Assembly: GCA_914767715.1 (NCBI GenBank)
Contig: OU612068.1
Coordinates: 16,616,001-16,680,000 of the forward strand
Reading direction: 5' to 3'
Length of the DNA: 64,000 bases
Source of the DNA: Membranipora membranacea
Lineage: Eukaryota; Bryozoa; Gymnolaemata; Cheilostomatida; Membraniporidae
The translations under genes were made by a program, and so were the position numbers. Positions 23,215-51,200 of the stretch are shown in pieces. The notes under the pieces are model-generated. The model worked only from the letters and a program-made list of their open reading frames with translations, had not been told where the DNA came from and did no database searches. Numbering within the stretch: position 1 is the first letter of the stretch; each line of letters begins with the position of its first letter.

Positions 23215-24653
23215 TTTATTGATGCAGCGATGTGCTCTGATCAATGATTTTAGCCTCCAGAAGTTTAGCTTTTATACCAAGAGATAACAGACAGGGAGTA
23301 TACAGGTGGTGGTACCAGAAGTCGGGGAATTATCTACAAGGGTTCAGTCTGCTTGAAATATTTAACCCAACGTGCAAGAATCAGTGGATTGATATCATAT
23401 TTAGTTTAATTTTGGGTAATTATATTTGGTAGTTTTTATTTGGTCTATCAAAATATGGAAGGGTAACACTTGCCCATGAGTCAATGATTGGTAAGGACAA
23501 AAGTTCCATTCCTTATTTACTTTGCAATTTTCAAAAAAAGTGTCCCTCTGAATGATATTGAGTACAGAGGAACACGGGGCCGAGACGCCATCGTGAACAT
23601 ACTTTATGATATCATTAATCTCCACCGAATATAACAACGCTATGGTAGCAAAATATGAGGGGGGTATGTTTGCAACAGCAATAATATTCTGTGAAAAGCT
23701 GAGGCGAGTCAATTATGGGTGATTATTCGAAAAACTGCCTCTTTCATAACGTCCAAACAATATCAGTTCTGGCTGCTTTTCTATTTTGTTCATGTTTACT
23801 TCTTCAGGCCAATACTTGCATTGAATTTTGCAACACGCTATCACGGTGTCATAAGTAATAAATCAGTAAATCATCTAACTCGCCGCTATAAACTTAATAT
23901 AACTGTCCATCTGATGTTTCTTTGTTGGTAGGATATCAATAACGAAATCAGCCTTGATTGAATTGTAACGTTTGTAGCTATAAGCAATATGTTTTGCTTG
24001 ATGCCCAATCTATGACGGTGTCAGCATGTGTTGTCTCCTCTTGATAAAAGGAGGGTCAACTTTGACACTGAACAATGCTTTATATAGAATCATAATGTGC
24101 GCATCTAGTATAATGCAGCATAGCACAGCAAATAACAATACCAATATTTGTCATATAGTTCTAATTTGCGGTTTTCCAAATAATTATACAATAAGTATGA
24201 GGTATGAAGTATGTATATTATTTGTAGGAGTTTATTATAAAAAATAACATTTTGTGTACTCTTTTGTATAAGAATTCATAATAAATTGTGTGGTCTCAAT
24301 GTGATTAACGTGCAGTGAAAGTATTGATAAGAAAAATTGGCGAATAATAAGATGCTTGGTAAAAATAGCATTTAAACTGTAATCAATATAATATATCCAA
24401 AAACCTTTGTTCTAATATTGAAAATAGTGCCTTTGAGGACACCACTATAGATTTCAGGGCTGTTGGGGAACAACCAAGATATGAGGTAAATTTGTGACCT
24501 CACACCAACTTCACTTCCTATTGACCAATTTATAAAATGAATCAGTTCGATTCAGAAAAAATTATAGAACAATATTCGTCAACTATTCTGTTTGTCATAA
24601 ATAATTCAGGCTTGACTTGAAAATTAAACCATTTAAAACTTGAATACATTATT
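23215..24653. other. Gene-free region between the secreted-protein gene and GPCR copy 1
   Basis: AT-rich sequence without recognisable exons, RNA genes or inverted repeats on inspection. Open frames here (for example near 23401-23712) have no family resemblance. It should contain the promoter of the secreted-protein gene and the 3' UTR of the GPCR at 24654. Confidence 0.35.
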
Positions 24654-25616
24654 CTATTCAGACTGAGACGGTATGTTGGACACCCTATTTCCTTTTTTGA
24701 ATGGACTGGCAATCACCCTCAGGCATTGTTTAAGCTGCTGGCGATAGCCTTTCATCATGATGCCATTAACGCCCACATTCAGTATGGCATAACTTTCTAA
24801 AATGAACTTTGCTACACGCTTAAAAGATGAAGGTTCTTCCGGGGACAAAGAAATGGACAAAGCAGGGAATATCGGACAACAACAAAATACTGCAAGTGTC
24901 ACCAAGACGAGGTATGTGGCTCTGAGCACGGAGTCATCAGGTGTCGATCTATCGCTCCTCCTCTGTTGCATCAGGTACAATTCTCTCAGCACAGAAGCAG
25001 TTGAGAAAATGATCACACCTGTTGACACACTTATAATTGAAAGGTGAAAACCTCTCTTTATCCAACCAACCTGAAAAGCAGTTGCCTCAGTTATCACTTC
25101 AGCAAAATTCCAGCAGCGCCCGCTGGCAAAGTCCAACAGCCAGCTGATTAGAAGGGTAAGGACATATATGACAGTAAGATTCACGGCGATGTTTTGGAGA
25201 AAAGGGTGAGCAGTGTATCGAAAAGGTTGGCATATAGCCACGAATCGATCGTAGCATGCTGCAGCAAGAATGTAGTATCGTGCTAAAACGAATTTCAGTC
25301 CACATGTAAGTACCATTTCACTGAGACACTTTTCTGATGGAAGGGGAATCCAGTCACAAGAAAACTTCATCATACCGAAGAACCCTGTAGATACATCGTT
25401 CATTGAGATTGCCATGAGTATGGTAAGCATTACAGAAGGTTCATTTTTCTTCAACATGAGTAAGATCAGAAGATGGGCAACATTTATAACCACTATTGCT
25501 ATCTGGAATGCTACTTCTGGTTTGTCAGCCGTACATGTTGTAATGCTGTCGTTATTGTATGAGTAAAGAGCACTGGTTGTGTTGGATGGAGCAGTTACAG
25601 CTGTTGAAGCAGCCAT
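24654..25616 (-). CDS. Intronless class A GPCR, copy 1
   Basis: Rhodopsin-like seven-transmembrane receptor of about 320 residues. I take the Met of MAASTAVT at 25616 because all four paralogues align from there; an in-frame Met at 25691 would add 25 residues. The N-terminus carries NTTS and NDS glycosylation sites. Seven hydrophobic helices follow. Cys in CDWIPLPSEKCLSE and in GRCW are candidates for the TM3-ECL2 disulphide. TM3 ends ACYDRFVAICQPFRY, a DRY-type motif. TM6 lacks CWxP and TM7 lacks NPxxY (YAILNVGVNGIMMKGYRQQL instead), so signalling properties may be unusual. Ligand unknown; the DRFVAIC stretch recalls olfactory-like invertebrate receptors. It is the lowest-coordinate member of a same-strand array interleaved with duplicated OS-9 exons. 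Confidence 0.9.
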   Translation of the reverse strand: MAASTAVTAPSNTTSALYSYNNDSITTCTADKPEVAFQIAIVVINVAHLLILLMLKKNEPSVMLTILMAISMNDVSTGFFGMMKFSCDWIPLPSEKCLSEMVLTCGLKFVLARYYILAAACYDRFVAICQPFRYTAHPFLQNIAVNLTVIYVLTLLISWLLDFASGRCWNFAEVITEATAFQVGWIKRGFHLSIISVSTGVIIFSTASVLRELYLMQQRRSDRSTPDDSVLRATYLVLVTLAVFCCCPIFPALSISLSPEEPSSFKRVAKFILESYAILNVGVNGIMMKGYRQQLKQCLRVIASPFKKGNRVSNIPSQSE

Positions 25617-26294
25617 GATGAATATTTCAGTTACCGTACGCCTCAATATGAATCTTATCAGTATTACCAGGTTTATATATGCTAGGCCCATAATAAGGTG
25701 GCAAGATGCTTCCTTTACATGCAGAGATTCATTATCTAAATTAAACCAACAGGAAATGAAAAATCACCATTACCATAATGAGAATTAATTTAATTAAACT
25801 AAAATGTGGCATGTTTTCATGAAAAAACTTATTTTAAGCTAATCGGTCACTTTCATTTTTAGCTTACAAAGTTAAATCAGTCCATTTTTACTTTTTTAAG
25901 AGTGATGAGCCCTTCTTTGATTGTATAATAGTGATTTTATGTTGTCGTTGATCGATAATCTATTTTCTCTGTCAGTCAAGAATGGAAATATATTAATTGT
26001 GAGTTGGTTGGCTTTGGGTCTTTCACTTGCTTAAGTGCTCAACCTCTGCCCTGTTTGCTGATATCCCTGACCTGGGGATGGGCGCTACAACTTACCTTGT
26101 ACCCACATCTGTTTGTGTTCATGATTGAACAATATATTAGCTACTTGGTACGCTGTGTACGGAATGATGGTACAGTGTGGTGTGTCAGGAATGGTGCCAA
26201 TTCTTGGAAGAGTTATAACCCATCTTGAGGAACCGGCGTTTCCATTCTGTGCACCTGTTCTTATATTATCTGTAATTTTAATTCATGAGAAGAT

Positions 26295-26460
26295 AGTCTA
26301 AGTGCTCAAACGGATGCTCGTGTGTGTGTTTGTGGCGTTATGCTATCATTTTAAAATGAATTTCTGATAATTATATACAGGGCTTGTTGAAGGGGACCAC
26401 TGCCAGTTATAGTATACTTGCTTGCTGTGGTGTAGATTCATGTACTTTGCAGTCGCAGGT
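26295..26460. other. Junction between the GPCR copy 1 unit and the next OS-9 exon unit
   Basis: The left part (about 26240-26370) matches the region upstream of GPCR copy 3 (about 40985-41115), including GTGCTCAAACGGATGCTCG. The right part from about 26458 matches the intron downstream of OS-9 exon 11 (about 44318 onward), including CAGTTTGCACATGCACAG. The OS-9 exons expected between them are missing, so the junction marks a deletion in the tandem array. Confidence 0.65.
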
Positions 26461-26870
26461 TTTGGTGAATTAATTTAACAGTTTGCACATGCACAGATTG
26501 GACTGCAATTGCATAAATTCATAGATTTCAAGATCAAATCTTTGAAACAGTATTGAGATCACACTGCCACAGTAGTAATGAGGTCACACTGCATATGTTT
26601 GAGCTTGGAACATTGTCGAGACTTTGGTGCCGATGGAAAGGAGTCATAATAAACTTAGTGTGAAGGTGATTGCAAACTTAAACACCAAAGCCTTTAACCC
26701 CTAACATCATTCTCAAGTCAACATGAACATGGCGAGCGAGTTTGAAGCTCTGAAACATTACGTGTATTCAAAAGTGGCATAAAGAATGTGCTTGAATCAG
26801 GTTGAAATTATGGATATTGGGTTGCTCATCACATATATTAGCCACCTTGACAATACTGTCTATAACTCAC

Positions 26871-26937
26871 ATTTTTCTTCCTGTCGCTGAAGTACAGTCA
26901 GTGGATCACTCTTGTCCTCAGCAGGAGCTATTCCTTC
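26871..26937 (-). pseudogene. Truncated copy of OS-9 exon 11 (unit 3)
   Basis: Copy of the exon at 44679-44759. It keeps EGIAPAEDKSDPLTVLQRQ and the GTGAGT donor, but the 5' splice acceptor and first ~14 bases are lost where the foldback element begins at 26938. It cannot be spliced as in the parent. Confidence 0.85.
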
Positions 26938-27788
26938 GAATCCGCCCCATTTTCCCAATGTCATTTTCCCACCAAGCCATTTTCCCATCTCCCGTTATCC
27001 CACTCTGCTGTTTTCCCACCTGGGCATTTTCCCACCGAGCCATTATCCCACCTGGTTGATTTCCCACAGTGCCATTTTCCCACCTGGATATTTTCCCACC
27101 AATCTAGTTTCCCACCTGGACGTTTTCCCACCAATCCATTTTTCCACCTAGATATTTTCTCAACAAGCCATTTTCCCACCAGACCGTTTTCCCACCCAAC
27201 AATTTTCCCAACAGGACAATTTCCCACCAAACAATCTTCCCAACAGGACAATTTACCACAGTGCTGTTTTCCCACCACAAAAACTTTTCACCGCACAATT
27301 TTCCTTTTTTCAGGCTAAGCCGTTCACATTGCACAAATACGTTATCAATGTTCACATCCAGCCAACGCAGGAGAAAGTAGCTTTGGAAATGGAGATGTGA
27401 CTTTATCAGTAGCAGGTTGCTTTTGATATGAGTTTTTTATTGCAAAACAAATCAATGGTGCCTATGACAATTCTCAAAAGACCCATTTGAGCCGTTTAAT
27501 CATCGCTCGAGCTGAAGAGATTATCATATTAACGGTTTTTGGCCATATTAATCTACAAAATTAAGCTTTCATCATAATATGTTATCCGCCACATGGCTTG
27601 TTTGTTTGTTTGATTGTTTTACTGGTCTACAAGCTCAATCAACCACCAAACAATGTCAAAAAAATTCTCACTCTATGTATATTCACATACATGATCCTTT
27701 CCTAGATGAAAATGAATATTATTCAAGTTACAACAATTATTTCCTTTGATCAGGGACCCTTCCTGCTTTTACCATAGCAACAGTTTGA

Positions 27789-27845
27789 AACATGTGGTAC
27801 CAATGTGGTACCAATGTGGTACCAATGTGGTACCAATGTGGTACA
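27789..27845. repeat. Short tandem repeat, 12-bp unit
   Basis: ATGTGGTACCA-type unit (GTGGTACCAAT) repeated about 4.5 times inside the foldback element. Each unit contains the palindrome GGTACC. Confidence 0.9.
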
Positions 27846-28084
27846 GTTATCACATCCGTTATGTCTGTGACAAGAACATAAAGATGTGTTTTTATCTATC
27901 ACCTATGTACATCTTATGGACACATACTGAAATAATGCTGCAATTCAATCGATGACATCATATCAACTGCTAGTTTTTTAGCCGACTGTCAAGTCCCATC
28001 GTTGTCATCGATTTTTAATCAAGTTTTTAAAAACCTTTGTCTTAAAGACTTAGTTTGAAGCTGCTATTTTGTATCACATTTTAT

Positions 28085-28525
28085 TCTCCATATTTTATTC
28101 TATCAGGTGAGTGATTTTGAGCTTTAGAATCCAAAAAGTTATGGCCTCTCAAACTTCCAGGGTGATCACCTACAATTGGCATTGGGATTCAGCTGGGTCT
28201 TTCATACCAGCAGGCAACGCCACTACCATTGCACCACTAGGTCCAGCTCTGTGGTTTGTAGACATTATAGCTCAGCGATAGCGGCGTTGCCTGCATACCC
28301 ATTTGGACCTGGGTTCGAGACCCTCTATTCCCTGAGCATTTTGATCATCATCCTATCTATTAGTATATCATAATAAGTATGACACGTTGTGACGTCCCAC
28401 GCGGTGTGCCAGCTGATTCTCAATGCCAATAGACTGCCGTCACTTTGGAAGTTTGAGAGGCTATAACTTCCTAATTATTTGGATTCTAAAGCTGGAAATT
28501 GCTCACATGATAGAATAGGATATGT
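28085..28525. mobile_element. MITE nested in the foldback element, with tRNA-like core
   Basis: Inverted arms of about 90 bp: left from TATTCTATCAGGTGAG through AGCTTTAGAATCCAAA and CCTCTCAAACTTCCA; right is the complement ending near 28525. Inside is a second inversion (GCAGGCAACGCC / GGCGTTGCCTGC). The region 28262-28330 has TAGCTCAGCG, like a tRNA A box, and GGGTTCGAGACC, like a B box, at tRNA-like spacing. Either a hybrid element or a MITE that captured a SINE/tRNA fragment. Confidence 0.75.
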
Positions 28526-29985
28526 CTTTAAAGTGTACATAACATACTCTACACCCCTACTCACTTTAGGACGCTACCACAAAGGTAGAATAGAGCTACA
28601 GCTGGGAAGGTGGGAAACTTCCCACCCTCCCCCACCGAACTTAGCTTGTCAAAACCGGCTACTGTTACCGGTAGGTACTAAACATAATAAATAAATATAA
28701 ATAGTACCAAATGCGCAGCACATGTGGTTTGGCATGGCAATATTGAATTACCGTAGCATAATCAAAAATTATAAATTTAAACCAAAACCTTGATTGTTCA
28801 TAAGATGTATGCCGTTTTTTTATAACATAATTTTTTTCAGGGAGTTGCTCTCCTGTTGACTCTTTATACCAACTAATGCAGTCGGCGTTCAATCCAGCAT
28901 TTTTCAAGTTCATTCCAGGATTTTCGAATTTCATACCAGACTACGTTCATTCCAGTTAGTTCAATCCTGTCGACGCCTGTTCCAACCGATGTTCATTCAA
29001 AGATTCGGTGTGCATCTTATGTTTCCAAACAAGCGCCCCCATAAATCTGACAACAGTTCCTTATGTGAACACAACTATGCCTTATTAAGGTACCGTACAA
29101 GAGCAAAGTTGTGATAAATCATGAGAAAACTGTTCAAGTCGTTTTCATAACCTCTAACAGCATTTTTAACACCAAATGTCATAGACTTTGGGATTCTAGA
29201 ATAAAAAAAGAACAACAAAACTTTTATGACGAGACTCTAACACACATTTTCTTTTGTCTGAAGAAGAACAGAAGGAAAAGAAAAAAAAATGTAAGGATGC
29301 TACATGCTCATCTGGAAAAAATAACAGTGGGAAAATGGCAAGTGAGAAAACGTCCGGGTGGAAAAATGGGTTGGTGGGAAATTGTCCAGGTGGAAAAATG
29401 GATTGGTGAGAAATCGTCCTGGTGGGAAAACGGATATGTGGACAATTTTTCTGGTGGGAAAATGGCTCGGTGGGAATATGGCTTGGTGAGAAAATGGCTT
29501 GGTGGGATAAATGGGGGGGGGGGGGGAATGGCTTGGTGGGAAAATGACATTGGGAAAATGGGGCGGATTCATATATATATACAGTACATATAAAGATAGA
29601 CAAAGATGTGGATATAAATCTATATACATATGTTCATGGTAGCCTACATAGTGATCCTTTCATGGCAATATACAGTACTTTTATGAAAGTGATCCAGGCA
29701 CTACCAATTTAATGTTACTGAGTAAAGCGCTTTATTTTATCCCAATATTCAGTAACAATATAATAGTATTCCACGGAAGTCAATATCGTTCAAATGTTAC
29801 ATTGCAATGCAAAACAAAAATACACCGCATTACAATAATTTATTTACTTTCTTTGAACATATTTTATTACTCTTAATTTACAATGTTTCTTGACAGCAAA
29901 ATACAAAAACAAAATCCTGAATGAATTGTTGACGCGTAAGCGCCATTCTGTGGAAATCATGAATTATATATACAGATTAACATAC

Positions 29986-30216
29986 CCTCAATTTCATTCA
30001 TTTTGTCATCCAGTTCTATTGCCATGAGTTGCTTTAAAATCTTGTCAGTAGGGAGAGCGCTGGCGTCATTGTGCTCCCCCATTACTAAATGTGTCTTTGC
30101 AAGAATTTCATCAAACAGTACTTCGACTTTCTCCTTGATGACATACTTGTGTCTGTGAGCGTGTAATCTGGTCTTCTTAATCACTCTTTGGATTTCAGCG
30201 CGCAGATTCAACATCA
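29986..30216 (-). pseudogene. Duplicated OS-9 exon 10 (unit 3), open reading frame intact
   Basis: Same 231-nt length, phase, acceptor (TTTCAG) and donor (GTATGTT) as the parent at 45673-45903. It encodes LNLRAEIQRVIKKTRLHAH through DKMNEIEG, with about eight replacements in 77 codons. Listed as pseudogene because its neighbours in unit 3 are broken; as an isolated cassette it could still be spliced. Confidence 0.8.
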
Positions 30217-30577
30217 CTGAAATATTGCAAGAGATCCAAGATTGCACATAAACAAATTGAAAAGATTCCAAGCTCGTTGACAATTTTTTTTATTTTTTAA
30301 TACTTTATTGTGTTATTTTTACTCAAAAGGCTAAGTAACATACTTAAAGTACTTAGCCTAGTAACAATACTCAAACGGCTAAGTAACATAGTAAAATAAT
30401 GGGTGTTATGGATTGTTTTGCAAAGTTAAAGATATGATAGAGGTTAAAACATAGACTTAATATACTTAAGTTAAGAAATTAAATATATGGGTTTAAAAAA
30501 CCAGCCACAAATAATATTTGGTCTAAATCATCATGGGTGAGCATCACACCAAACATTCATATTCAAAATAATCTTAC

Positions 30578-31369
30578 AGAAGAATTGTTGACGCTTACTA
30601 GCCTGTCCGATTGACCCATGTGCAGGTGGGAGAGGGTAATGAGCTACATAGTCTTTATCTAACCAAGTGTTAGTTTTCACTCCACTTTTCTCTGGAGCTA
30701 CAGCATCTGGAAGGTCAAGGTCGCTGTTTGACCCAACTATGCCCTCATCGGTCCAACACCTCTATTTATTTCCCCATTGCTTTACATACAAACTATGTTG
30801 ACTTGTCACCTCAATAGGCCTGCTTCAGGTTCTTTCAATTCTTTAACCAGACCACTCAAAATGATGGTATGCTTCTGCTCTTCCATATTAATGACTATAG
30901 GTTGAAAATTCGTTGCCAGAATTTTTCAGTGGCCCCATATGTAAGACCATTGCATGTTTCACACATTTCCTGTCTAATTTTCATTAGCCAAACCGTATGC
31001 ATTGATCTTCCTAAAATGATTTTGCAAAAAGAATTTCAAACTTTAATTCAATAAATTTCCATTGCAAATACATCTGAAAATATTTACAGGGTTCAATATC
31101 ACTGATAGCAGTGCTTTTGAATTGGCTACACCCTCATTTGTCATCAGCATACTAATCATTTTATTTTGGAGGATGGGTGCAACAAGCTGACCTTCACCCA
31201 ATTACAGGTGTATTACCATCATCAGGGCTGGCTTCTTTGGGTGTAGATCCGAGGCTTCTTGGATTGGAAGCTGATGTTTCTTTTTTAGCGAACGGCATTT
31301 TAGCATCTCTCATCATTTCAGCTACTTTATCCGTAATGCTGTCAAAATCCCCTATTTCCACCTCCACTC
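30578..31369 (-). pseudogene. Duplicated OS-9 exon 9 (unit 3), split by a transposon
   Basis: Copy of 46150-46485. The 5' part (31221-31369) encodes GVEVEIGDFDSITDKVAEMM... to SPDDG; the 3' part (30578-30749) resumes at DEGIVG and keeps the GTAAGA donor. A 468-bp insert at 30750-31217 separates them and creates an in-frame stop. A separate 15-nt deletion removed five codons present in the parent. Confidence 0.9.
30750..31217. mobile_element. 468-bp MITE inserted in an OS-9 exon copy
   Basis: Boundaries are fixed by comparison with the uninterrupted parent exon near 46320. Flanks show an ATC duplication (30747-30749 and 31218-31220). Ends are imperfect inverted repeats (GGTCCAACACCTCTA and, inverted, GGTAATACACCTGTA). 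No transposase. A 3-bp duplication would fit PIF/Harbinger-type elements, but ATC is not the usual TWA target. Confidence 0.85.
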
Positions 31370-31497
31370 CTGCAGCAAAAGAATTTTAGGCATGATTACA
31401 TATAGCTGTGAAATATTGAATAGAAATCAGATTCTGTGAGTAATGATGTCATAACATATCAGCATAGCTTGAGCATATGCTTTTGGGACATTATCAC

Positions 31498-32190
31498 TTT
31501 AAAGGCTGGTCTAGAATTGTAGAGTTGTTGGTAAGACGGTTGCAGTGAGTTGCAGCAATGAACTGAGGGAGTTCATTGGTTGCAGTGTTGTTGCAGTGTT
31601 GTTGCAGGGTTTTAAAAATCAATGGATCGCAATTGCAGACCGCTGCAATATTGTAGGGTTGCAGCAGGTTGCAGCAGCAACAATTGCACAGCAAGTTGTA
31701 AGATATTATCAAAACATTGACCTGTCTGCCTCACTCTTGTCATATAAGATTCTGTATTCTTTTATTATATGCATCAAAACACGGTGAACTATGTATGAAG
31801 ACATGCTGCTTTCTTGCTCCTAGAGAAGGCTGGAGTGAGTGAAGAATGTGAGGAACTTTGGTGTTCACACTACTAACTACTTCATTACTGATAAATGGCT
31901 CGCTCCTGCCTTGGCATATTTACAAGAGACAATGCATTGTGGGCTGGAAAGTAAAAAGATCAAGCTGTTGCAGAACCAATAAAATCACACGACCACGGTC
32001 CACAATAAAATCTTAGGCTACCATCGCCGTCGGGCGTCGCAGAATTCTGACACTGCTGAACTTATGCGACAGGAATCACGGCCACGTGCAGAGGTGGCAC
32101 GACTCCTGCGATACTGCGATTTTGTGGTCCACAATTGCAGTAGACTCCTGAAATCATGCGATTTTGCTGCAATTCTGGACCAGCCTTAAA
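31498..32190. mobile_element. Inverted-repeat element rich in TTGCAG repeats
   Basis: Left end AAAGGCTGGTCTAGAATTGTAG, right end is the near-complement of AAGGCTGGTCCAGAATTGC. The left interior has several GTTGCAG/GCAGCA units; the right has tracts such as CTGCGATACTGCGATTTTG. Compared with unit 1 (46829-46850), this segment belongs to about 960 bp of extra sequence between CACTTTA and GCCTCAAAAGCAAAT. Non-autonomous. Confidence 0.75.
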
Positions 32191-32206
32191 CCACTGGTGA
32201 CACAGC

Positions 32207-32317
32207 AGGGCTGGACATACGTTGACCCTGACCAATCAGGTGCCTTTGAAATCTAGCTGTGTTGGATCCCAGTTAGATATTAAAGGCACCTGATTGGTCA
32301 GGGTCAACGTATGTCAT
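32207..32317. repeat. Hairpin with 33-bp perfect arms
   Basis: ACATACGTTGACCCTGACCA and the following bases through GGTGCCTTT are exactly inverted after a ~35-base loop, which itself carries a short inversion (ATCTAGCT / AGTTAGAT). It sits just right of the 31498-32190 element and may be nested in it. Confidence 0.85.
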
Positions 32318-33806
32318 CACTAATGGAGGATGGCTGGGGAAGAAGATACTCTCTACTTTTTGAGAGCTCATATAACTCCATGCAAAGCTACTGGCTAGTG
32401 GTTTTGATGCCACAACTCTCAATTTAAATTTTTGACTGGTGGCAGTGGCAGCAGTGGTTTAAGCCTCAAAAGCAAATTAGGAAAGATTGAGCAAATATAC
32501 TAAACACACATGACCTCGAAATTTTGTAATAAATATTCAAACAAATTTTTTCTTTATTTTCTTCTAATAATTTTATGTGATTATCTATGTGACTTTATCT
32601 ACCGAGCCGTCGCTCGGAGACATGAATGATTGTCTGCAAATTAAGCTTGAAAATGATGAATCGAGCAGTCTTCCATAAATAATGAGAATCAAAACTATTG
32701 CTTTGATCACTGTCACTGCTGGCTCAAATAGGCTAATTTGATACCATATTCACTTGGATACTATTATATAGTTGCCTTGCAGTGAAACGTTATGAAACGA
32801 GACGTCAAGCAGCTCTTGTTTTATCAGCATGGAAACGGTTTTCAATCGAAAGCTGCACACCTAAATCTAATCATTTTATTATCTTTAATCAAACAGTCAA
32901 ATGAGAGAAAAATAAAGGTTAATGATGGTAAAAATTACTAATAGATAAAAAACTCAATAGTGAAATTCTATGGATATATCATAAAATGATTCCCCCAGGT
33001 ACTGAATTTCATGGCAACACAGCAATTGCAAATAAGTATATTTTAATTAAAATATGTTACGTAAACACAGATTTCTTTTTGCTATCGAAAATATTTTTTA
33101 GTTCTGGTTTCCAAAATAATATAATTGAAGTATGCATATATATATATTTGTATTACTTTACAGCAATATGAAATAAACATTTTATGAATTCTCAGATTCA
33201 ATTGAATCACAAAGTTCTTGTAGCTCATCCAACAACTGAAAACAGGCAGAAACCTGAAATTGGGCCAACAGTTTTAATAATCAAGTACAATTTCCAATAT
33301 CATATTCAGTCAGACCAGTTTGGGTTGTACTCAAAAACCTTAGACCAAAGCGTCTTATAGTCTGGCAGTTACTAATGATAAAGTTGTGTCAGATTTGCAT
33401 GGTAAACAAATTAAATGCTCTACATAGCATGAATTATTGATGGTGGAAAAAGTGCCTTCCATAAAAAAAGGTAACTCCCATTCCCTGCATTATGATGTCA
33501 CAGTCTCCTGAAAGTGCTTGTTTTTTTGTACTGCACAAAACTGCCTGACTATAACATGCATTGGTCTTTGGGTAGCCTTTAATGTTATGGTCTCACTTAT
33601 AAATTTCTGTTTCGCTTCTTGATAAACGTGCACTATAAGTTTTTACAATAACACATTTTTTTCTTGAATAATATCACATGCTTGGAAAAAATATCATCTT
33701 GACTCCAATCAATATGTTATACCAATAACAATTGTTCAAAAAATTTAATTTTTCAAAAGTCGAAATAAAGTCTTATAAACAAAAACATTTTACACATATT
33801 TTGCTC

Positions 33807-34805: not shown

Positions 34806-35035
34806 GATGAATGTTTCAGTTACAGTACTGATCAGTATTTCCAGACAGATTTACATAAATGTTAGCCCCATAATAAGGAGGCAATAGCATTTATGTGCAG
34901 AGAGTCATTATCTAAATTAAACCAACAGAAAATGAAAAAATTACCATAATGATAACTTATTTAATTATATTAAAATGTGGCATGTTTTGAAGATTTTCAT
35001 GTCATTTATGACTGAAAGGCGAAAGATGACCGTTT

Positions 35036-39668: not shown

Positions 39669-40652
39669 TTAATTTGATTGCATGGTTCTATTCTGGGGAG
39701 AAACTGGTATGATGGCCACCCTATTTCCTCTTTTTAACAGACTGGCAATCATCTGCAGACATTGAATAAGCTGCTGGCGATAGCCTTTCATCATGATACC
39801 ATTAACAACCACATTCAGTAGTGCATAACTTTCTAAAATGAACCTCGCAACACGCTTTAAAGGTGAAGATTTGTCAGAAGACGTAAAATAGGACAAAGCA
39901 GGGAATATCAGACAAAAACAGAATACCGCAAGTGTCACCAAGACCAGGTATGTGGCTCTGAGTACGGAGTCATCAGGCGTTGATCTATCGCTCCTCCTTT
40001 GTTGCATCAGGTATAATTCTCTCAGCACAGATACAGTTGAGGAAATAATCACAATTGTTGACACACTTATAACTGAAACTTGAAAACCTCTCTTAATCCA
40101 ACTGACTCGAGAAGCAGTTGCTTCGGTTATCACGTCAGCGAAATACCAGCTGCGCCCGCAGACAAAGTCCCATAGCCAGCTGATGAGTAGGGTAAGGACA
40201 TATGTGACAGTAAGATACACGGCAACGTTTCGGAGAAAAGGGTGAGTTGCGTATTGAAAAGGTTGGCATATAGCCACGTATCGATCATAGCATGCTGCAG
40301 CAAGAATGTAGTATCGTGCTAAAACGAATTTCAGTCCACATGTAAGTACCACTTCACTGAGACACTTTTCTGATGGGATGGGAATCCAGTCACAAGAAAA
40401 CTTCATAATACCAAAGAATCCCGTTGATACATTGTTTATTGAGATGGCCATGAGTATGTTAAGCATCACAGATGGTTCATTTTTCTTCAACCTTAGTAAG
40501 ATCAGTAGATGGGCCACATTAATGACAACTATTGCTATCTGGAGCGCTACTTCTGGTTTGTCAGGCATACATGTTGTAATGTTAGTGTCATTGTATAAGT
40601 AAGGAGCACTGGTTGTGTTGGGTGGAGAAGCTGCAGCTGTTGAAGCAGCCAT
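39669..40652 (-). CDS. Intronless class A GPCR, copy 3
   Basis: Open frame of 327 codons from the Met of MAASTAAAS (an in-frame Met at 40799 would add 49 residues of less conserved sequence). Seven hydrophobic helices; TM3 ends ACYDRYVAICQPFQY, here the canonical DRY. ECL2 has GRSW where the others have GRCW or GHCW, so the usual TM3-ECL2 disulphide Cys is missing at this position. TM7 lacks NPxxY as in the paralogues. The C-terminal third is almost identical to copy 2, while the N-terminal half is closer to copy 1, a mosaic pattern that suggests gene conversion. Confidence 0.92.
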   Translation of the reverse strand: MAASTAAASPPNTTSAPYLYNDTNITTCMPDKPEVALQIAIVVINVAHLLILLRLKKNEPSVMLNILMAISINNVSTGFFGIMKFSCDWIPIPSEKCLSEVVLTCGLKFVLARYYILAAACYDRYVAICQPFQYATHPFLRNVAVYLTVTYVLTLLISWLWDFVCGRSWYFADVITEATASRVSWIKRGFQVSVISVSTIVIISSTVSVLRELYLMQQRRSDRSTPDDSVLRATYLVLVTLAVFCFCLIFPALSYFTSSDKSSPLKRVARFILESYALLNVVVNGIMMKGYRQQLIQCLQMIASLLKRGNRVAIIPVSPQNRTMQSN

Positions 40653-41193
40653 GATGAATATTTCAGTTACAGTACACCTCAATGTGAATCTTATCAGTAT
40701 TTCAAGGTTTATATATGCTAGGCCCGTAATAAGCTGGCAAAATGCTTCCTTTACATGCAGAGAGTCATTATCTAAATTAAACCAACAGGAAATGAACAAA
40801 TCACCATTACCATAATGAGAATTTAGTTAATTAAACTAAATGTGGCATTTTTTTAATGACAAAACTTATTTTAAGCAAATTGGCCATTTTCATTTTTAGT
40901 TTACAAAGATAAATCAGTCTATTTTTACTTTTTTAAGAGTGATGAGCCCTTCTTTGATTGTATAAGAGTGATTTTATGTTGTCGTTGATTCCGTGCACCT
41001 GTTCTTATATAACCAGTAATTTTAATTTACGAGAAGATAGTGCTCAAACGGATGCTCGTGTGCGTTTGTGGCGTTACGCTATCATTTTAAAATGAATTTC
41101 TGATAATTAAATACCACAAACATGCACTTGCTGACGTCTGAGCACTTAGACTAATCAAAAATTTTGTATGTCATTTGTGTCCGGAAGGAGAAT

Positions 41194-41253
41194 GATGTTG
41201 GTCTACAAGCTGCTCTTTTATAGACGCCTTTAGCTTCTCTATGTCTTCCCAGC
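41194..41253 (-). pseudogene. Decayed copy of OS-9 exon 8 (unit 2)
   Basis: Retains EDIEKLKASIKEQLVD. The 5' edge has lost the DDG codons (CCCAGTTGCTGGGAAGAC), and there is no convincing donor after LVD. Short, but its placement upstream of GPCR copy 3 matches the parent arrangement. Confidence 0.75.
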
Positions 41254-42258
41254 AACTGGGCAATGGACAAAAGATCAATATCCAAATCAAAACATCATGT
41301 GAAACAGATACACAATTCCTAAAATTACGCAAATTCTAAATTAATTTAATTTTGCAACTTATTACGCGTAATACGGCAAGTACGCAAACCCGCTAATTAT
41401 TTTCATTTGAAAAACCTTAGCAGGCTTGCCAGCAAAATGTTTAAACTTTTCTTTCAGGCCTTAATTATAAGTCAACAAATTGTCTGTTCAAAGATTATTT
41501 TCTGCGTGTTGCTTTCTTTGCTGATATCACGACCAACACACAGTTCACAGTGACAGCAAGATTCAGCTTTCGTTTCTGATGGACTGAACCAAACACTAAG
41601 TACTTATTGCTGCAATGTCTCATTGTCAAGTGACTTGATCAGTAAATGAAATTGATAAACAAAGAAGATGTTGTAACAAAACCTTTGCATCTGAATTTTA
41701 ATATATATATATATATCCATTTTATTCACTGATCAAGTCAGTCAGTCAGTAAAGTGAATTTGTAAAAAACTTATCATATATGAGAGTGTTTTAAAAACCA
41801 AAGTTTGCTTATAACAAATCACGAAGATTCAATAATTTGCCGCTAAATTGCATTACCTGTATAGTTTCATCTTGCAGGATGGCTGATATAAGCTAATATA
41901 TGACTGTCAATCTGATACCAAAGTTTGATGGTGGCAATATGCATTGCTTGTGACGCAAACGGTAATTTTGTTAGTGTTTGTTGTCTCCTCACAGCAAAAA
42001 GGAGGACAACTTCAACACTTCCTTGAAATGGATGGAATTGTGTTTGTATCTGGTGTAGGACAAAAGGTATATTGCAGCACAGAATAAAGAAAAAACATTT
42101 CAAAATTATTAATGGCAACATAGTTTAATCCATAAAAGAGCTCGTAAACTTTTAGAGACATAAAATTGGCATAAAAATAAAAAATCTGAAATATTGAGCA
42201 AGCAGCGTTTTGGAATGTCTGTTTGAATGAGAGACAGACAAAGCTCACACTGAATATT

Positions 42259-45200
42259 TTATAGCTCATCACGTTCTTTAGCTTTCTCAGTCCATGTTTT
42301 ATCGTAGTTCTTCGCCATTTTATCATATCTTTTCTCCTCCATTCTGGTTCCACGCACTGCCATCGGTTTCTTAACAAAAATTATTATCTCAATCAAAATG
42401 ATGGAATATCAATATTTGATAAATCACTTTTCAGAGTTACTATATTAAGAAATTAATATTCTTGTTGGTCACTAAAGGAATCTGACCGATTTTGGTTGTT
42501 CCAAAAGTTCTGCTTTGGTAGCTTACATCTGAAATTAATCATGCCACATCAGTTAACTTCATGAGTGTTTGATGAGCACTTTGGTATAAACATATTACAA
42601 GTTTGTTCCCTCGGTGGTGGCGGAGGGATATTGCAAATGCTTGGTATCGATACCAAACATTTTCAATATCCCTCCGTCACCACAGAGGGAACAAACTTGT
42701 TCTAGCATAAACCCGCATAGTGAAGTAAACAGGAAAGAAAACGCCTTAGCTGGATTAAGCCTTACCAGGACTGCTAGCATAGTTTTCACTTCTCTATTGT
42801 CACCCATGTTACCCTTATTGTCGGCAGGTTTTTTCTTGGCAAGGTCGTCTTTGAACTGATAGTATATTGAGTCTTTATCAACAGCATCCAGATCTATCAT
42901 TTCCACTTCCATCTGTTCGTTTTGTTCTACAGGTGGTAATGAAACTTACATTTTTTTATCTAATAAGCTTCAAAATCAAACAGACAAATAAATAAAGTAA
43001 TCATAATAAATCATGACAGTAAATTATGAAATATTGGTATAATATTGTTCCTCAAAATGATTTAAATGATGATTTTAATTCAATTAATCAATCAAAACTC
43101 CAATTAGAAGTGAGTAAAATTTTTCAAGCACGCATATTTCAGCGCAACTCAACCAAATAGATGATTATATTCAGTGGAGGAAGCATTGAGCCTGAACTAG
43201 ACCAAGTTTGGTCCATTTGCCTGCATTCCGGGTCGCTCCCAATCCACTGGTCACGGCGTGACCAGTGGAAGGGAGCAACAGGAATGCAGGCAATTGGATT
43301 AAACTTGTTCTAAGCGTGAACAGGCAACTTCAAAGCAATTCGCGTTATGGAAACTTAGTGATTGAGCATACTCTGACTGAATTCATACAGTTTACAGTAC
43401 TTTGAGAAACAAATCCACATATTATGTCAGGAAGTTTGACAAAAAGGCTACTCTCATAAGACTTACTGATAATGTCCAGTTTGAGGTCGTTCTTTTTCTT
43501 TTTATTCGGATTCTTTTGAGATTCTGTACCCTTTTGCTTATTGTTCAGTGCATTCTTCAATGCCCCAAAAGGCTCTTTTGATTTTTCTGCTGCATTTGAG
43601 GCTTGCCCTGTCAGTTTTTCAAGTTCTACAAGTAAATGAAAGATACAATTATGATAATAGTTGGGACAAGCGGTCGATATATATATATATATATATATAG
43701 TATAGAGAAAGGGACCTGCATAAAACATGCACACTCACTGCGTCATATGACCTCTGAGTGACATTGAGGGATAACTCCATGTAATCTACTACTGATGTTG
43801 GGAGTAATGGACTGTCTCTTCAGTGCAAGTTGTTTTCAGAAACCAATCAGGTTAATTACAAGCTTACAAACCTTCAAGCTCATCAAGTTTAGCCTCTAGC
43901 ACCCCTGACATAGTCCGTTTAAGTTCTTGTAGATCAGTCAAGGCGGTACCCACTTCCTCCCCACCAGCCTCCAGTTCTTGTCGAGCTTCATCGATTATGT
44001 CATCAAATTGTTCAGTGAGATATTGACGTATATTTTCTTTATACGAAGCTACAGTGCCTTTACCGGGATCTTTCATTGCTTCTTGTAGCATCTTCATTAC
44101 TAATAAATAAGTAAACGTTTTTCTATACACCCATATTCAGTTAAAAGTGTTGACAGCAATGATTCTGCCAGCAGGATAGTCCTGTGTCATAGACTATCTC
44201 TGTAGCACAGCAATGTTCAAGGAAATCGGATACCGAAACTTGTATTCTATTCAGGCCCAAATATTGCCAAATAGGGGGTTTCCATTTTTTTTCCAAACCT
44301 AGGGAGGTCTAGGTGAATTAATTTAACAGTTTGCACATGCACAGATTGGACTGCAACTGCACAAATTCATAGATCTCAAGATAAAAATCTTTGAAACAGT
44401 ATTGAGGTCACACTGCCATGTTTAAGCCCTGAACATTGTGGAGATCTTGATGCTGATGGAAAGGAGTCATAATTAACTAAGTGTGAAGGTGATTGCAAAC
44501 TTAAATACCAAAGCCTTTAAGCCCCTAACATCATTCTCAAGTCAACATGAACATGGCGAGCGAGTTTGAAGCTCTGAAACATTACGTGTATTCAAAAGTG
44601 GCATATGGAAAGGGCTTGAATCAAGCTGATACTTTGGATCTTGGGTAACTCAATTATTCCCAGCTTGTTCTAACTCACATTTTTCTTCCTGTCGTTGGAG
44701 TACAGTCAGTGGATCACTCTTGTCCTCAGCAGGAGCTATTCCTTCTCTCCTCTCTGTGGCTGCATATATAAATATACAAATACATTCATGTACACATACA
44801 TACTGATATAAACATATACTCATGTGTACACAGAGCGATCCCTTTATAGCCATATACAGTACTATTATGAGAGTGATCCAGGCACCACCAAATAAATGTT
44901 ACTGAATAAAGTGGTATAAATAAATCAGCACAATATTCAGTAACAATAAATTAGTATTCCAAGGATGTAAATATCGTTCAAATGTTACATTGCAATATGA
45001 AACAAAGATAGATCACATTACAGTTTTCTGAGCTCTGATTTAGGCCTCAATTTGGAATTGTCCTCTCTCCAGTTTGGTACTTTTAACCCACGCTGCATAG
45101 GAAAAACGTGCTGAAAAGAGGGTTATCTTGAAAACTGCTCGGATAAAAATTGTTTTTATTTAAGAATCTGCAACCTTGAAAAGTCGATCATAATGGACAT

Positions 45201-48200
45201 AGTTTGGTAAATAATTTGGATAGTCAATTATAGCATTTTCTGCCAGTTTTGCGGACAATTTGGCAGAATCTTTCATGAGTTTCGTCACTAAAATTAGGAT
45301 TTATCTGCAGTCAAGCCTCCAATGATTTGGAAACCCTGTCTCCCAGGGTTTTCAATGGTGCAGACTCTGAATCAAAAATCATTTTTATCCTAGCATCAGC
45401 GGTTTTCAATATAACCCTCTTTCAGCAGGTTTTTCCTATGTGGCGTGGGTTAAAAGTACCAAACTGGAGAGAGGACAACTCCGAATTGAGGCATAAATAA
45501 GAGCTCAGAAAACTGTCTATACATTGCAATACATAATGCATAACATCGCGGTACAGAAAACATAATTTGAAATTGTGACCTTTATACATAAACATGGATA
45601 ATCTTGAACAAATTTTTGACGCTTACGCTCTATTCTAAAAAGGCATTAAGTATTGTATACTGATTAACATACCCTCAATTTTATTCATTTCATCATCCAG
45701 TTCTATTGCCATGAGTCGCTTTAAAATTTTGTCAGTGGGGAAAGCGCTGGCGTCATTGTGCTCTCCCATTATTAAATGTGTCTTTGCCAGAATTTCATCA
45801 AACAGTACTTCGACTTTCTCCTTGATGACATATTTGTGTCTGTGAGCATGTAATCTGGTATTTTTCATCACTCTTTGGATTTCAGTGCGCAGATTCAACA
45901 TCACTGAAATATTACAAGAGATCCCAGATTGCACATAATCAAATTGAAAAGATTCCAAGCTCTTTGACAATAGTCAAAAGGCTAAGTAACAGAGTAAAAT
46001 TGTGAATGTTATGGATTGTTTTGCAAAGATGAAGATATGAGAGAGGTTAAAATAACCAATCACAATAATACTTGGTATAAATCATCATTACACCAATGAA
46101 CGCATTTAAAGCAATACACCAAATAATCATATTCATTAGAATTACTTACAGAATAATTGTTGACGCTCACTAGCCTGTCCAATCGACTCATGTACAGGTG
46201 GGAGTGGGTAATGAGCTACATAGTCTTTATCTAACCAAGTGTTAGTTTTCACTCCACTTTTCTTTGGAGCTACAGCATCTGGAAGGTCAAGGTCACTGTC
46301 TGGCCCAACTATGTCCTCATCATCAGGGCTGGCCAATGGATCTGAGGCTTCATTAGGTGTAGAGCCGAGGCTACTTGGATTGGAAGCTGATGTTTCTTTT
46401 GTAGCGATCGGCATTTTAGCATCTTTCATCATTTCAGCTACTTTGTCCGTAATGCTGTCAAAATCCCCTAATTCCACCTCCACTCCTGCAGCAAAAGAAT
46501 TACAGGCTTGTTTACATACAGCTGTGGAATAGCACATGCATGGGCACAAATCAATGCAGGTTGGTTATCTTGGCACCATAGTGACTGAACTAATTCAAAT
46601 GTGCTTGCCTCTTCAAACTGAAAAGTCTCCCCACCCGCACTGGGGAATAAGTTAGCTTTCATAGGTAAATGTCATGTATATAGGTCAATTGGGCCAGTTT
46701 GTGGCACTTTCGCTACTGTGCAGAGAGTCTGTTGTGTTGTGGAATACGGAATGGCAATCAGACTCTGTGAGTAATGCTGTCATAAAATATCAGCATAGCT
46801 CAGGCATATGCTTCTGGGACATCACTACTTTATGCCTCAAAAGCAAATCGTGAAAGATTGAGCAAATATACTTAACAAACAAGACCTCTAAATTTTGCAA
46901 TAAATGTTCAAAAAAATTTTTTATTTTCTTCTCCCACCACAATTTTATGATTTGGATAATTAAGTGTATGTGATTATCTCTGTGAATTTTCTACCGATCA
47001 TCGCTCAGAGACATGAATGGTTGTCTGCAAAAATTGGCTTCAAAATGTTCAATCGAGCAATCTTTCATAAATAATGAAAATCAAAACTATTGCTTTGACA
47101 CTGACACTGCTGGCTCAGCTAGACTAAATTGATACCATATTCACTTGGAGACTATTATATAGTTCCGTCTTGCAGTGAAATGCTATGAAACGAGACCTAA
47201 GCAGCTCTTGTTTCATCAGCATGGAAAGGGTTTCCAACCGAAAGCTGCACACCTTAATCTAATCATTTTATTATCTTTATAAAAAATTCAAATAAGAGAA
47301 AAATAAAGGTTATTGATGGTAAACATTACTAATGGGTATAAAATTCAATAGTGAAATTCATGCAATGTGGAAAAAATATCATCTTGACTGCAATCAATAT
47401 GTTATACCAATAACCATCGTTCAAATAATTAAATTGCACCTTTCAGTCACTACAAGTTGTCAGGATTGTTGGGCATTTCAATATTCAACAGTCGACACAT
47501 AAAGTATATTTTTTTAAAAGTCAAAAATTTGATGCCGTCACAATGACATTTAGGTTATGTCAATGCTCATTATTCAGTTCGATTCAGGAAACGGCATAGA
47601 ACAATTTCCTGAAATAATTCGTGTTTCTCTTCTAGATTAAAATATTTTACATATATTTTACCCTGAATTAGAGTGCATTGTTCTATTCAGATTGAGAGGA
47701 TGGTGTGACAGACACCCCATTTCCTCTTTTAAATGGACTGGCAATCATCTGCAGACATTGAATAAGCTGCTGGCGATAGCCTTTGATCATGATACCATTA
47801 ACGCCCACATTCAATATGGCATAACTTTCTAAAATGAACCTCGCAACACGCTTAAAAGGTGAAGATTTGTCAGGAGACAAAAAATAAGACAAAGCAGGGA
47901 ATATCAGACAACAGCAAAATACTGCAAGTATCACTAAGACAAGGTAAGTCGTCTGGCGCTGATCTATTGCTCCTCCTTTGTTGTATCAGGTATAATTCTC
48001 TCAGCACAGATACAGTTGAGAAAATTATCACAATTGTTGACACAACTATAGCTGAAACTTGGAATCCTCTCTTAATCCAACTGAATTGAAAAGCAGCTGC
48101 TTCAGTAATCATGTCAGCGAAAGACCAGCAGCGCCCGTGTGCAAATTTCAACAGCCAGCTGATTAGAAGGGTAAGAACATATATGGCAGTAAGATACATG

Positions 48201-51200
48201 CTGATGTACCCGAGAAATGGGCGAGTTGCGTATCGAAAAGGTTAGCGTATAGCCACGAATCGATCGTAGCATGCTGCAGCAAGAATGTAGTATCGTGCAA
48301 AAACGAGGTTCAGTCCACATGAAAGTAGCATTTCACTGAGACACTTTTTTGATGAGAGGGGAATCCAGTCACAAGAAAACTTTATAATACCAAAGAATCC
48401 AGTAAAAATATTGTTCATTGCGATGGCCATGAGTATGTTAAGCATAACAGAAGGTTGCTTTTTCTTCAACAGGAGTAAGATCAGAAGATGGGCAACATTT
48501 ATAACAACTATTGCTATCTGGAGTGCTACTTCTGGTTTATCAGCCGTACATGTTGTGATGTTAGTGTCATTGTATGAGTAAAGAGCCCTGGTTGTGTTGG
48601 ATGGAGAAGTTGATTTGATACCTGTTGCGGATGATAGAGCAGCCATGATGAATGTTTCAGATTGAGTGTCTGTATCGTACTGGGAATATTGTAAGTGTTT
48701 CCATATTTATATGCTAGTCCCATAACAACAAGGGAAAAGCATTTTACATGCAGAGAGTCATTAGATTAATCAAAAATGTAACAACCAGAAATGAAAGAAT
48801 TTTCCATGCTGAGAAAGTAAATAATTATATTAGAATGCAAGACATTTTCGCCATTACTCAGCAAATTGGCCTTTTCAATTTCTGGTTTAAACACTTATTT
48901 AGAAGTTTTGTTTTCTATATAAGGAGTGATGAACCCTTCTTTGATTGTGTAAGAGTGATTATATCTTGTAGTTGATCCAGGGAGTTACAGAGAACTCCTT
49001 GGTTGATCGGTAATTCATTTCCTTTGTCAACTTAGAACAAATATAGATTAAATGTGAGTTTGTTGGCCGTAAGTCTTGTATTTTTATTTGCTCATACTGA
49101 TGCAAAATTTGGGAGAGCTACAACCCATTCAGAGATGCCTGGATTTCCATGTTGGGCACCCGTGCAAAAACTTTTATTTTGTAGCTAAAGAGAAGATTGG
49201 TGTTTCATTTGTGTTCGAAAGAGAAAGATGCAGAACAAACCAAAGTTATGAGCCTTACCATTAGCACCCAGTAGGTCTCCGAGCTGTTCTTTCAGTGACG
49301 CCTTCAACTTCTCTATGTCTTCACCATCATCTGGACCAAAGAAAAAAAAAAGATAATAACCATCAGAACATCATGTGAAGCAGATACACCAAGTTATTTT
49401 CATTTGAGTTAACTTGATTTTAGAAAACCATAACAGTTTTACCAGTAAAATGTTCAAATTGATAAGTTATTCTTCGTGCTTGTACTCTAAGTCAACACAT
49501 CGTCTGTTCGAAAATCATTTGTGGCTGGCTGCTGTGTTGTTGATATCGCAGCCGTTACACAATTTAGAGCGATGGCACCACAAGTTTATTGCTGATACAC
49601 AGTAGGATAAAAGGTGCGGTTTGATGTTTGGACACGTACCTTCTTCATCACCAGCATCAAGACGTGCTATCCTGGCTGCCTCTTCTGCCTCCAACTCTGT
49701 GTAGGGAAAATAGAGATAAACATTATTATTATATCATAAACGCATATTGTGATTCGGTTTAGCCAAGCTCTGAGTATAATTCAACACTGATAAGCCATTT
49801 CTGTTGGACTCGCCAGTTAACTTTTTACTTATTTGAGGAGTGCAGGTACGACGGTGAAAATAGCATTTAGGACATAATAATAAATAAGGAGTGCTTATCT
49901 CCCCCAACCTAGACACTGGTTATGTACTATATGCAAAATATCATCTGTTGAGAAGACCGTTCTTGGCCTCTTATCGAATTATTCGGCATTCACTTACAGC
50001 CCCCTTTCTCCATATTTCCATACACAGATTAAACCTCAACATTAACTTATTCACATACGTTTACTCAGGCCTCCCCCCTCACGGATACACTGACTCAACA
50101 ATCCCACATACAGCAACTCACCCAGCTTCAGCTTTTCCGCAGCTTCCTCTGCTGACTTGACGTAATCATCATATATAGCCTGAGAGACCAGAGGTTGACA
50201 CTGGATAGGAGATGGGGTGGCCTGCACGGGTGGCCTCAGGTAGGGATGATGGCATATTTTAGATGTGTATATAAATATGATATATGAACATGTCTCTAAT
50301 TCTGCTATTGCACCGATATGATCTGGTTCTCCTTCTAAACATGAGAACTGTAATGAAAAGTAAAATCAAACTCTATATATTGCAATATCATACCGTCTCT
50401 GTTAAGTGTGTAAGATACCTTGTGTGCAGTTAAAAGTTGTCAGCAGAATATTATTATAAATGACCATGCACAGGCAACCTTAGAAACAAAGCCAGAGTTT
50501 GAGAAGTTGTCATCACTTAAACCAAGTCACTGTTTGGAGTGCCAAATCTTAGAGGTCCGCAAACCAAGATTCTCATTCTGGATTGGAGGGCAATTTGATA
50601 AACGGCTCCCAAAACATTATTGGATCAAAAATGATTTTTTTTTCTAATGCTGTACTCACCCTAGCTTCCACCCTTCTCTGTTTTTTAGTGAGATCACACA
50701 CCGATCCGTTGACATATTGCTGGGTGTGATATCGATTAATAGAAGACTTTTTGGCGTTTTCCTGTGAAGCATACATCAAAGGTATTGAAAGGCATGCGGG
50801 CCATGTGTAGGCAGTTTTGGACATGGGCACAACCAGTTAGGAGTTGGGGAATTCAGGGCCAAAATTGTAATTAACTAATAACAAATAGCACAATTCATAA
50901 ACGTGTTTAACTATTGGAGCCCACAGTGTTAGTTCCTTGGCTTCACGTGATCATTCTCTTGATAAGTTGGTGCTTGAATACAAATCAGATTTAAACCAAA
51001 GCCAAAGAGAAAACATCAGAGATTCTGAGAATTCGGGACTATAGGCTGAATCTATAAAGAATCCTTTTCCACATTACGGATTTATTGCTCTCCATGATCT
51101 ACCATTAAGCAAACCACAAAGATGTGATTTTAATTTCCAAAAGTTGGGCGATCACAGGACATTATAAAAACAACAGGTGTGTAAGGCCCAGGGATATCTT

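What the first reader, a model, noticed from the sequence alone, without database searches (positions are those of the whole stretch)
24300..49330. Tandem array in which a nested GPCR and the 3' half of OS-9 duplicated together
Reading along the minus strand, the block [OS-9 exon 8 - intronless GPCR - OS-9 exons 9 to 15] recurs, complete once (49.3-42.3 kb) and in part at 41.3-37.3, 35.1-26.9 and 26.3-24.3 kb. Four GPCRs stay in register with the flanking OS-9 exon remnants. The parsimonious history is that a single-exon receptor landed in an OS-9 intron, and the composite segment then duplicated in tandem. This expanded the receptor while the accompanying OS-9 exons decayed: a receptor family amplified by hitch-hiking on an unrelated host-gene segment.
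Basis: partly seen in the sequence, partly recalled or inferred. Interest (0 to 1): 0.9.

Follow-up and report, generated by a model that had tools for sequence, protein, structure and literature searches.

The report
Receptor nested in OS-9 duplicated tandemly
In what looks like a bryozoan (moss animal) genome, a receptor gene sitting inside another gene was copied along with the back half of its host gene, giving three open receptor copies, one dead one, and at least one leftover host exon that evolution has kept nearly unchanged.

Summary
On the minus strand, [OS-9 exon 8 - single-exon rhodopsin-class GPCR - OS-9 tail exons] recurs: complete in U1 (49.6-41.6 kb), partial in U2 (41.6-35.3) and U3 (35.3-26.5); U4 (26.4-24.2) is receptor and flanks only. 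The U1|U2 and U2|U3 junctions share one breakpoint in OS-9 intron 7, about 35 bp past exon 7: one founder tandem duplication, then array growth, deletions, insertions and gene conversion. Divergence outside the receptor ORFs (K2P about 0.1-0.66) argues strongly against allelic misassembly. The closest OS-9 proteins are bryozoan. The receptor copy still inside the complete OS-9 is a pseudogene; the three released copies are open and under purifying selection. The OS-9 exons did not all decay: exon c44' of U2 (38333-38560) keeps both splice sites and differs from U1 by 16 synonymous changes and one or two amino acids (dN/dS about 0.01), far too few for a neutral copy. Its neighbours e42' (now broken) and f42' are equivocal. 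So at least one passenger exon served as coding sequence for most of its life, perhaps in an alternative OS-9 3' end. That use is inferred; RNA is needed.

The parts
41589..49604 (-). Unit U1: intron 7 part, OS-9 exon 8, GPCR1 pseudogene, OS-9 tail exons to KERDEL stop and 3' flank
   Evidence: self-alignment and junction alignment
35290..41588 (-). Unit U2: exon 8 remnant, GPCR2, exons c44', e42', f42'; the part matching U1 about 47.3-44.7 kb (a46, b45) is missing and d43 was not found; low boundary approximate
26455..35289 (-). Unit U3: exon 8 remnant, GPCR3, a46' (split by an insertion), b45'; tail from c44 on not found; high boundary approximate
24241..26378 (-). Unit U4: GPCR4 with flanks only
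47690..48646 (-). GPCR1, pseudogene (in-frame TAA at 48244 and a later frameshift), inside the complete OS-9 gene
   Evidence: frame change near 47955
39669..40652 (-). GPCR2, open single-exon rhodopsin-class receptor, 327 aa
33807..34805 (-). GPCR3, open, 332 aa; GPCR4-like stretch near its 5' end, GPCR2-like last third
24654..25616 (-). GPCR4, open, 320 aa
50122..52384 (-). OS-9 exons around the MRH lectin domain (52205-52384, 51378-51515, 50660-50761, 50122-50347)
49640..49696 (-).
49259..49330 (-). OS-9 exon 8 (intact copy)
46150..46485 (-).
45673..45903 (-). OS-9 exon b45
43872..44099 (-). OS-9 exon c44, U1 copy
43467..43625 (-). OS-9 exon d43 (no copy found in U2-U4)
42766..42926 (-). 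OS-9 exon e42
42259..42369 (-). OS-9 last exon f42, ending KERDEL-stop
   Evidence: Bugula OS9 ends PPDEL in a similar context
38333..38560 (-). c44', U2 copy of exon c44: open, both splice sites kept, dN/dS about 0.01
37727..37886 (-). e42', U2 copy: stop codon and 1-bp deletion; dN/dS 0.09 but amino-acid changes within the neutral range at d=0.10
37337..37447 (-). f42', U2 copy: open to KECDEL-stop, dN/dS 0.20, neutral not excluded
35055..35111 (-). exon 8 remnant of U3
41201..41260 (-). exon 8 remnant of U2
30591..31367 (-). a46' of U3, split between about 31218 and 30749 by an insertion of about 470 bp
29969..30211 (-). b45' of U3 (tblastn bounds), open, splice sites kept, dN/dS 0.23

Best explanation
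A single-exon rhodopsin-class receptor lay, in the same orientation, in the intron after exon 8 of the OS-9 gene of a bryozoan-like animal (inferred from its place in the units). One tandem duplication then copied everything from about 35 bp inside intron 7 to beyond the OS-9 3' end (shown by the shared junction). Exchange between the copies made further units, and deletions and insertions trimmed them (differences shown, order inferred). In my splice model the introns on both sides of exons 7, 8, a46, b45, c44 and d43 are phase 1, so copied exons could join the OS-9 5' half in frame, as a ready-made alternative 3' end (inferred). Selection kept at least exon c44' of U2 coding for most of its history (shown by substitution pattern; use in a transcript inferred). 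The receptors outside the intact host gene stayed open under purifying selection with conversion between them; the one left inside it died.
For: Collinear off-diagonals and exon-by-exon tblastn. Shared U1|U2 and U2|U3 breakpoint. OS-9 model of 12 exons, 12 of 12 with AG acceptors and 11 of 11 with GT donors (bounds chosen by me at such motifs), one 666-aa frame ending KERDEL. Bryozoan OS9 as the two best hits: Bugula neritina 51% and Watersipora subatra 58% identical over 44% and 30% of the query. c44/c44': 16 synonymous and 1 non-synonymous differences in 75 codons, Fisher p 9e-11; in the wider 77 codons the differences by codon position are 3, 0, 15 with two amino acids changed. Neutral simulation of the U2 branch: two or fewer changes in 0 of 4000 runs at d=0.10, 44-46 of 4000 at d=0.05. 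U1-U2 K2P in seven segments outside the receptor ORF is 0.13-0.44, and 0.21 in the intron just before c44, so half-branches are 0.06-0.22. Receptors: dN/dS 0.40, 0.41, 0.46 in the three intact pairs, Fisher p 3e-6 to 5e-5; ORFs 85-89% identical against 56-73% in 3' flanks; G2/G3 differ at 12 of 362 sites in the last third against 55 of 400 in the middle.
Against: No RNA, second genome or long reads were available. e42' has a stop and a frameshift, so the U2 tail cannot now encode the full OS-9 C-terminus. The low dN/dS of e42' and f42' does not by itself show constraint: at d=0.10 a neutral branch does as well in 594 and 885 of 4000 runs. c44' could be a recent casualty: at d=0.02, 34% of neutral runs have two or fewer changes. 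The 5' flanks of the receptors are not uniformly diverged (66-89% identical), so conversion may explain part of the receptor similarity. No AATAAA or ATTAAA was found at 36500-37340 behind f42'. The species is inferred from protein relatives only.
Confidence: 0.85

Rival explanations
1. Exon c44' is not in use now: the U2 tail, or part of it, was an alternative OS-9 3' end until recently and is decaying, with c44' not yet hit.
For: e42' is already broken; a46, b45 and d43 have no copy in U2; a neutral branch of d=0.02 leaves two or fewer changes in 34% of simulations.
Against: f42' and e42' show 6.5 non-synonymous differences each (of 89 and 124 sites) while c44' shows 1 of 174, so c44' stands apart.
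Confidence: 0.43
2. Exon c44' was overwritten by gene conversion from another functional OS-9 copy elsewhere in the genome, and tells nothing about selection at this site.
For: Gene conversion does act in this array (receptor mosaics).
Against: Conversion from U1 would erase synonymous differences, but dS is 0.41.
Confidence: 0.08
3. The copies are alternative haplotypes or an assembly expansion.
For: Assemblies of outbred invertebrates often keep both haplotypes (general knowledge).
Against: Outside the conversion tracts the copies differ by about 8-44%, carry different deletions and insertions and share an internal junction, while the upstream exons tried have one copy.
Confidence: 0.02
4. 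The receptor inserted or was retrocopied several times independently into OS-9 fragments.
For: The receptors are single-exon.
Against: Similarity runs on through both receptor flanks, and the receptor follows exon 8 in U1-U3.
Confidence: 0.02

Closest known systems
Tandem receptor arrays (chemoreceptor-like GPCR families grown by unequal crossing-over, with pseudogenes and gene conversion; general knowledge)
   Same: Single-exon PF00001 receptors head to tail, one pseudogene, mosaic copies, dN/dS 0.40-0.46
   Different: The amplified unit is a chimera: half of an ER quality-control gene travels with each receptor
Nested genes in introns, and their duplication with the host
   Same: Receptor lies in a host intron and was copied with it
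   Different: Only the 3' half of the host was copied, leaving one complete host gene plus tails. Searches listed no equivalent case, judged from titles and abstract openings only
Alternative exons made by partial tandem duplication (general knowledge)
   Same: Phase-1 symmetrical exons duplicated downstream, c44' kept under strong constraint
   Different: Whole tail units with receptor genes between them, and no transcript evidence
OS-9 / Yos9 ER lectins
   Same: MRH domain; the C-terminal KERDEL resembles an ER retrieval signal. PMC3332353 (passages seen) says that, in contrast to YOS9, Arabidopsis OS9 has no C-terminal HDEL
   Different: Bugula and Watersipora OS9 gave no tblastn match in exons a46 and b45 (E<=0.01), though they gave none in e7, e8 and d43 either

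Membership tests
OS-9 ER lectin family | MRH (PF07915) domain | tested here: met
   PF07915 E=1.1e-14
OS-9 ER lectin family | Best relatives are OS-9 rather than ERLEC1 | tested here: met
   PDB: chain labelled OS-9 2.8e-43 before ERLEC1 1.8e-25. Of 29 hits, 20 bear the name OS-9/OS9, 3 'Endoplasmic reticulum lectin', 5 no name, 1 'hypothetical protein'
OS-9 ER lectin family | ER location and binding of trimmed glycans | not testable with these tools
   Bench work; KERDEL end seen
Rhodopsin-class (PF00001) GPCR | PF00001 match | tested here: met
   2 of 3 intact copies above the curated cut-off, the third 0.1 bit below
Rhodopsin-class (PF00001) GPCR | Seven transmembrane helices | tested here: inconclusive
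   AlphaFold2 model is mostly helical but pLDDT 46; the hydropathy scan showed only four or five distinct strong peaks
Rhodopsin-class (PF00001) GPCR | DRY-type motif after TM3 and NPxxY in TM7 (motifs from recall) | tested here: inconclusive
   CYDRF/CYDRY present; the TM7 region reads NGIMMKGY instead of NPxxY
Chemosensory receptor | Expression in sensory cells, ligand response | not testable with these tools
   Suggested only by tandem array, divergence and a pseudogene
Tandem duplication with exchange between copies | Units in direct order with one shared junction | tested here: met
   (two of the three junctions; U3|U4 is joined elsewhere in the unit, read as a deletion joint)
Nested gene | Receptor lies within an intron of the complete host gene | tested here: met
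   GPCR1 lies between e8 (49259) and a46 (46485) of the OS-9 model; that copy is dead

The most novel reading that the evidence does not exclude
The array is a dual-use locus: transcription of OS-9 runs on past its first 3' end into U2, where c44' (and a shortened e42') is spliced to the OS-9 5' half to give an isoform that ends after EQNEQMEV without the KERDEL retrieval signal, so that one tandem duplication both freed a receptor from its host intron and gave the ER lectin a second, possibly secreted, form.
Probability: 0.3. Interest if true: 0.65.

Novelty: new variant of a known kind. Interest (0 to 1): 0.45.

Why it matters
It is a clear, dissectable case of how a nested gene may leave its host: partial tandem duplication copies guest and host tail together, the guest copies outside the host stay alive, the one inside dies, and at least one host passenger exon is kept by selection. 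It makes testable whether living inside another transcribed gene is bad for a receptor, and whether copied tails become alternative 3' ends. It also marks a receptor family for which two searches of a 5.8-billion-protein set returned only three relatives (candidates are picked by shared words, and one search scored a capped list).

Tried and rejected
Reading exon f42 in the frame of the longest ORF gave a false stop in U2 and dN/dS near 1; the frame that fits splice phase and the Bugula OS9 end is open to KERDEL/KECDEL. I first took the low dN/dS of e42' and f42' as proof of constraint; a neutral simulation does not bear that out at d=0.10, so the claim now rests on c44' alone, and the odds of the first rival went from 0.45 to 0.43. 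b45 as an old duplicate of c44 (27% identity): profile comparison gave probability 10.8%, E 0.0028, left open. The receptor model was too poor (pLDDT 46) for a fold search, so none was run. The PDB gave no receptor relative at E<=0.01. Rfam found nothing in the window at gathering thresholds. One test of exon 8 in U3 with wrong bounds (row x) was discarded; the tests of exon 8 (0.07 and 0.15 on 20 codons with gaps) are too small to use. One search used unit segments with hand-set bounds.
Full report
OBSERVATION. Four units: U1 (49604-41589) is complete; U2 (41588 to about 35290) lacks what matches U1 at about 47.3-44.7 kb, the stretch with exons a46 and b45 (joint near 39.4 kb); U3 (about 35289-26455) has nothing from exon c44 on; U4 (26378-24241) is the receptor with its flanks. 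tblastn of eleven OS-9 exon peptides at E<=1 found only their own places for the four upstream peptides (other hits E 0.048 or worse). For the seven exons of the unit it found four in U2, three in U3 and none in U4. One upstream exon (50660-50761) and the first exon or exons were not among the queries.

THE HOST GENE. Twelve exons join into one 666-aa reading frame ending KERDEL-stop; I placed the bounds at AG and GT motifs, so their presence is by construction, but the single open frame is not. The first exon or exons are not in the model. It matches PF07915 and a PDB chain labelled OS-9. The two best hits are bryozoan OS9 proteins, Bugula neritina (51%) and Watersipora subatra (58%), over 44% and 30% of the query; 29 hits came from a capped list of 7992 scored candidates. 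So the window is most likely from a bryozoan of another genus (inference). The Bugula protein ends ...AILRPM...PPDEL, in line with the last two exons here. Exons 7, 8, a46, b45, c44 and d43 have lengths divisible by three and phase-1 introns on both sides, so copies can be added or skipped in frame.

THE RECEPTORS. Three are open single-exon frames of 327, 332 and 320 aa matching PF00001. The fourth, inside the complete OS-9, has an in-frame TAA at 48244 and a frame change near 47955. Pairwise dN/dS of the intact three is 0.40, 0.41 and 0.46. The ORFs are 85-89% identical; 3' flanks are 56-73% and 5' flanks 66-89% identical. Both selection and conversion contribute: GPCR3 agrees with GPCR4 at 13 of 13 two-against-one sites in alignment columns 100-199 and with GPCR2 at 47 of 49 in columns 800-1071. 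Relatives returned from 5.8 billion proteins are P0001, P0002 and P0032, from unnamed ENA contigs of 1.1-1.3 kb; word-based candidate selection limits that search. The model of the receptor is helical but of low confidence, and the hydropathy scan showed four or five distinct strong peaks, not seven. A chemosensory role is a guess.

HOW THE ARRAY AROSE. The U1|U2 and U2|U3 junctions align with each other on both sides of the breakpoint, while the intron 7 sequence of U1 joins the alignment only after it. The breakpoint is about 35 bp inside intron 7. So the founder event fused the region downstream of OS-9 to early intron 7; the second junction reuses it. No copy of the upstream exons tried was found in the window. 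The receptor follows exon 8 in U1-U3, hence was probably nested before (parsimony). Later events include a 2.6-kb element with inverted ends in U3 (26938-29570) and about 470 bp in the a46 copy of U3.

WHAT HAPPENED TO THE PASSENGER EXONS. For exon 8 it fits: indels in U2 and U3. For U3 it mostly fits: the two a46' pieces have dN/dS 0.39 and 0.49 and amino-acid changes within the neutral range at d=0.10 (642 and 606 of 4000 runs as low); b45' (0.23; 8 synonymous, 8 non-synonymous) is lower than expected at d=0.10 (66 of 4000) but not at d=0.05 (2016 of 4000). For U2 it does not fit c44'. That copy keeps acceptor and donor and has 1 non-synonymous difference in 174 sites and 16 synonymous in 51 (this stretch includes five intron bases at the donor). 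Over 77 codons two amino acids differ; at one c44' has the residue of Bugula and Watersipora, at the other U1 has it, so each copy has probably changed once. In neutral simulations of the U2 branch, 0 of 4000 runs at d=0.10 (half the divergence of the intron next to it) and about 1% at d=0.05 (below the lowest half-value, 0.064) had two or fewer changes. e42' (dN/dS 0.09) and f42' (0.20) look low, but a neutral branch at d=0.10 reaches their counts in 594 and 885 of 4000 runs, and at d=0.17 in 7 and 57; e42' has a stop and a 1-bp deletion. The best reading is that c44' served as coding sequence for most of its history and may still do so; for the rest of the tail this is open.

MECHANISM, SHOWN AND INFERRED. 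Shown: composite tandem duplication, shared breakpoint, conversion, constraint on c44'. Inferred: prior nesting, splicing of OS-9 into U2, and that release from the OS-9 transcription unit favoured survival of the receptors. One listed preprint (PMC12393541, title and abstract opening seen only) is about transcriptional interference gating odorant receptors in ant arrays, which makes interference in a host intron a fair idea but no more.

LITERATURE. Searches for nested genes and their duplication listed 10, 6 and 9 papers and, by titles and abstract openings, no equivalent case; searches gave bryozoan genomes, OS-9 papers and receptor expansions. One paper was opened, PMC3332353, passages only. 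The library is partial, so this is no proof of novelty.

VERDICT. Observation confirmed; interpretation partly supported; the surprises are the constrained passenger exon and the dead inner receptor.

Noticed in passing
26938-29570: 2.6-kb insertion in U3 with inverted ends (56 nt, 91% complementary, starting GAATCCGCCCC) that run into arrays of a 16/32-bp minisatellite: looks like a foldback-type mobile element.
   Followed up: partly
45020-45516: About 500-bp stretch in an intron of U1 with inverted ends (about 165 bp, 86%), absent at the matching place in U3: looks like a MITE.
   Followed up: no
30749-31218: About 470 bp interrupting the a46 copy of U3, beginning GTAATA, with both flanking halves of the exon still open: insertion or new intron.
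   Followed up: partly
45673-45903 and 43872-44099: Adjacent OS-9 exons b45 and c44 are alike in length (231 and 228 bp) and phase and weakly in sequence (27%), perhaps an older exon duplication; a profile test was weak.
   Followed up: partly
9503-9734 and 38627-38863: Dispersed inverted repeat (69%) shared between the array and the region beside a phosphatase exon.
   Followed up: no
11204-11500: Plus-strand ORF with a dual-specificity phosphatase domain (PF00782, E=1.6e-16); the name slingshot phosphatase is from recall.
   Followed up: partly
37727-37886: At the stop in e42' the U2 copy differs from U1 at two bases that also make GTAAGT, a donor-like sequence. Possibly chance.
   Followed up: no
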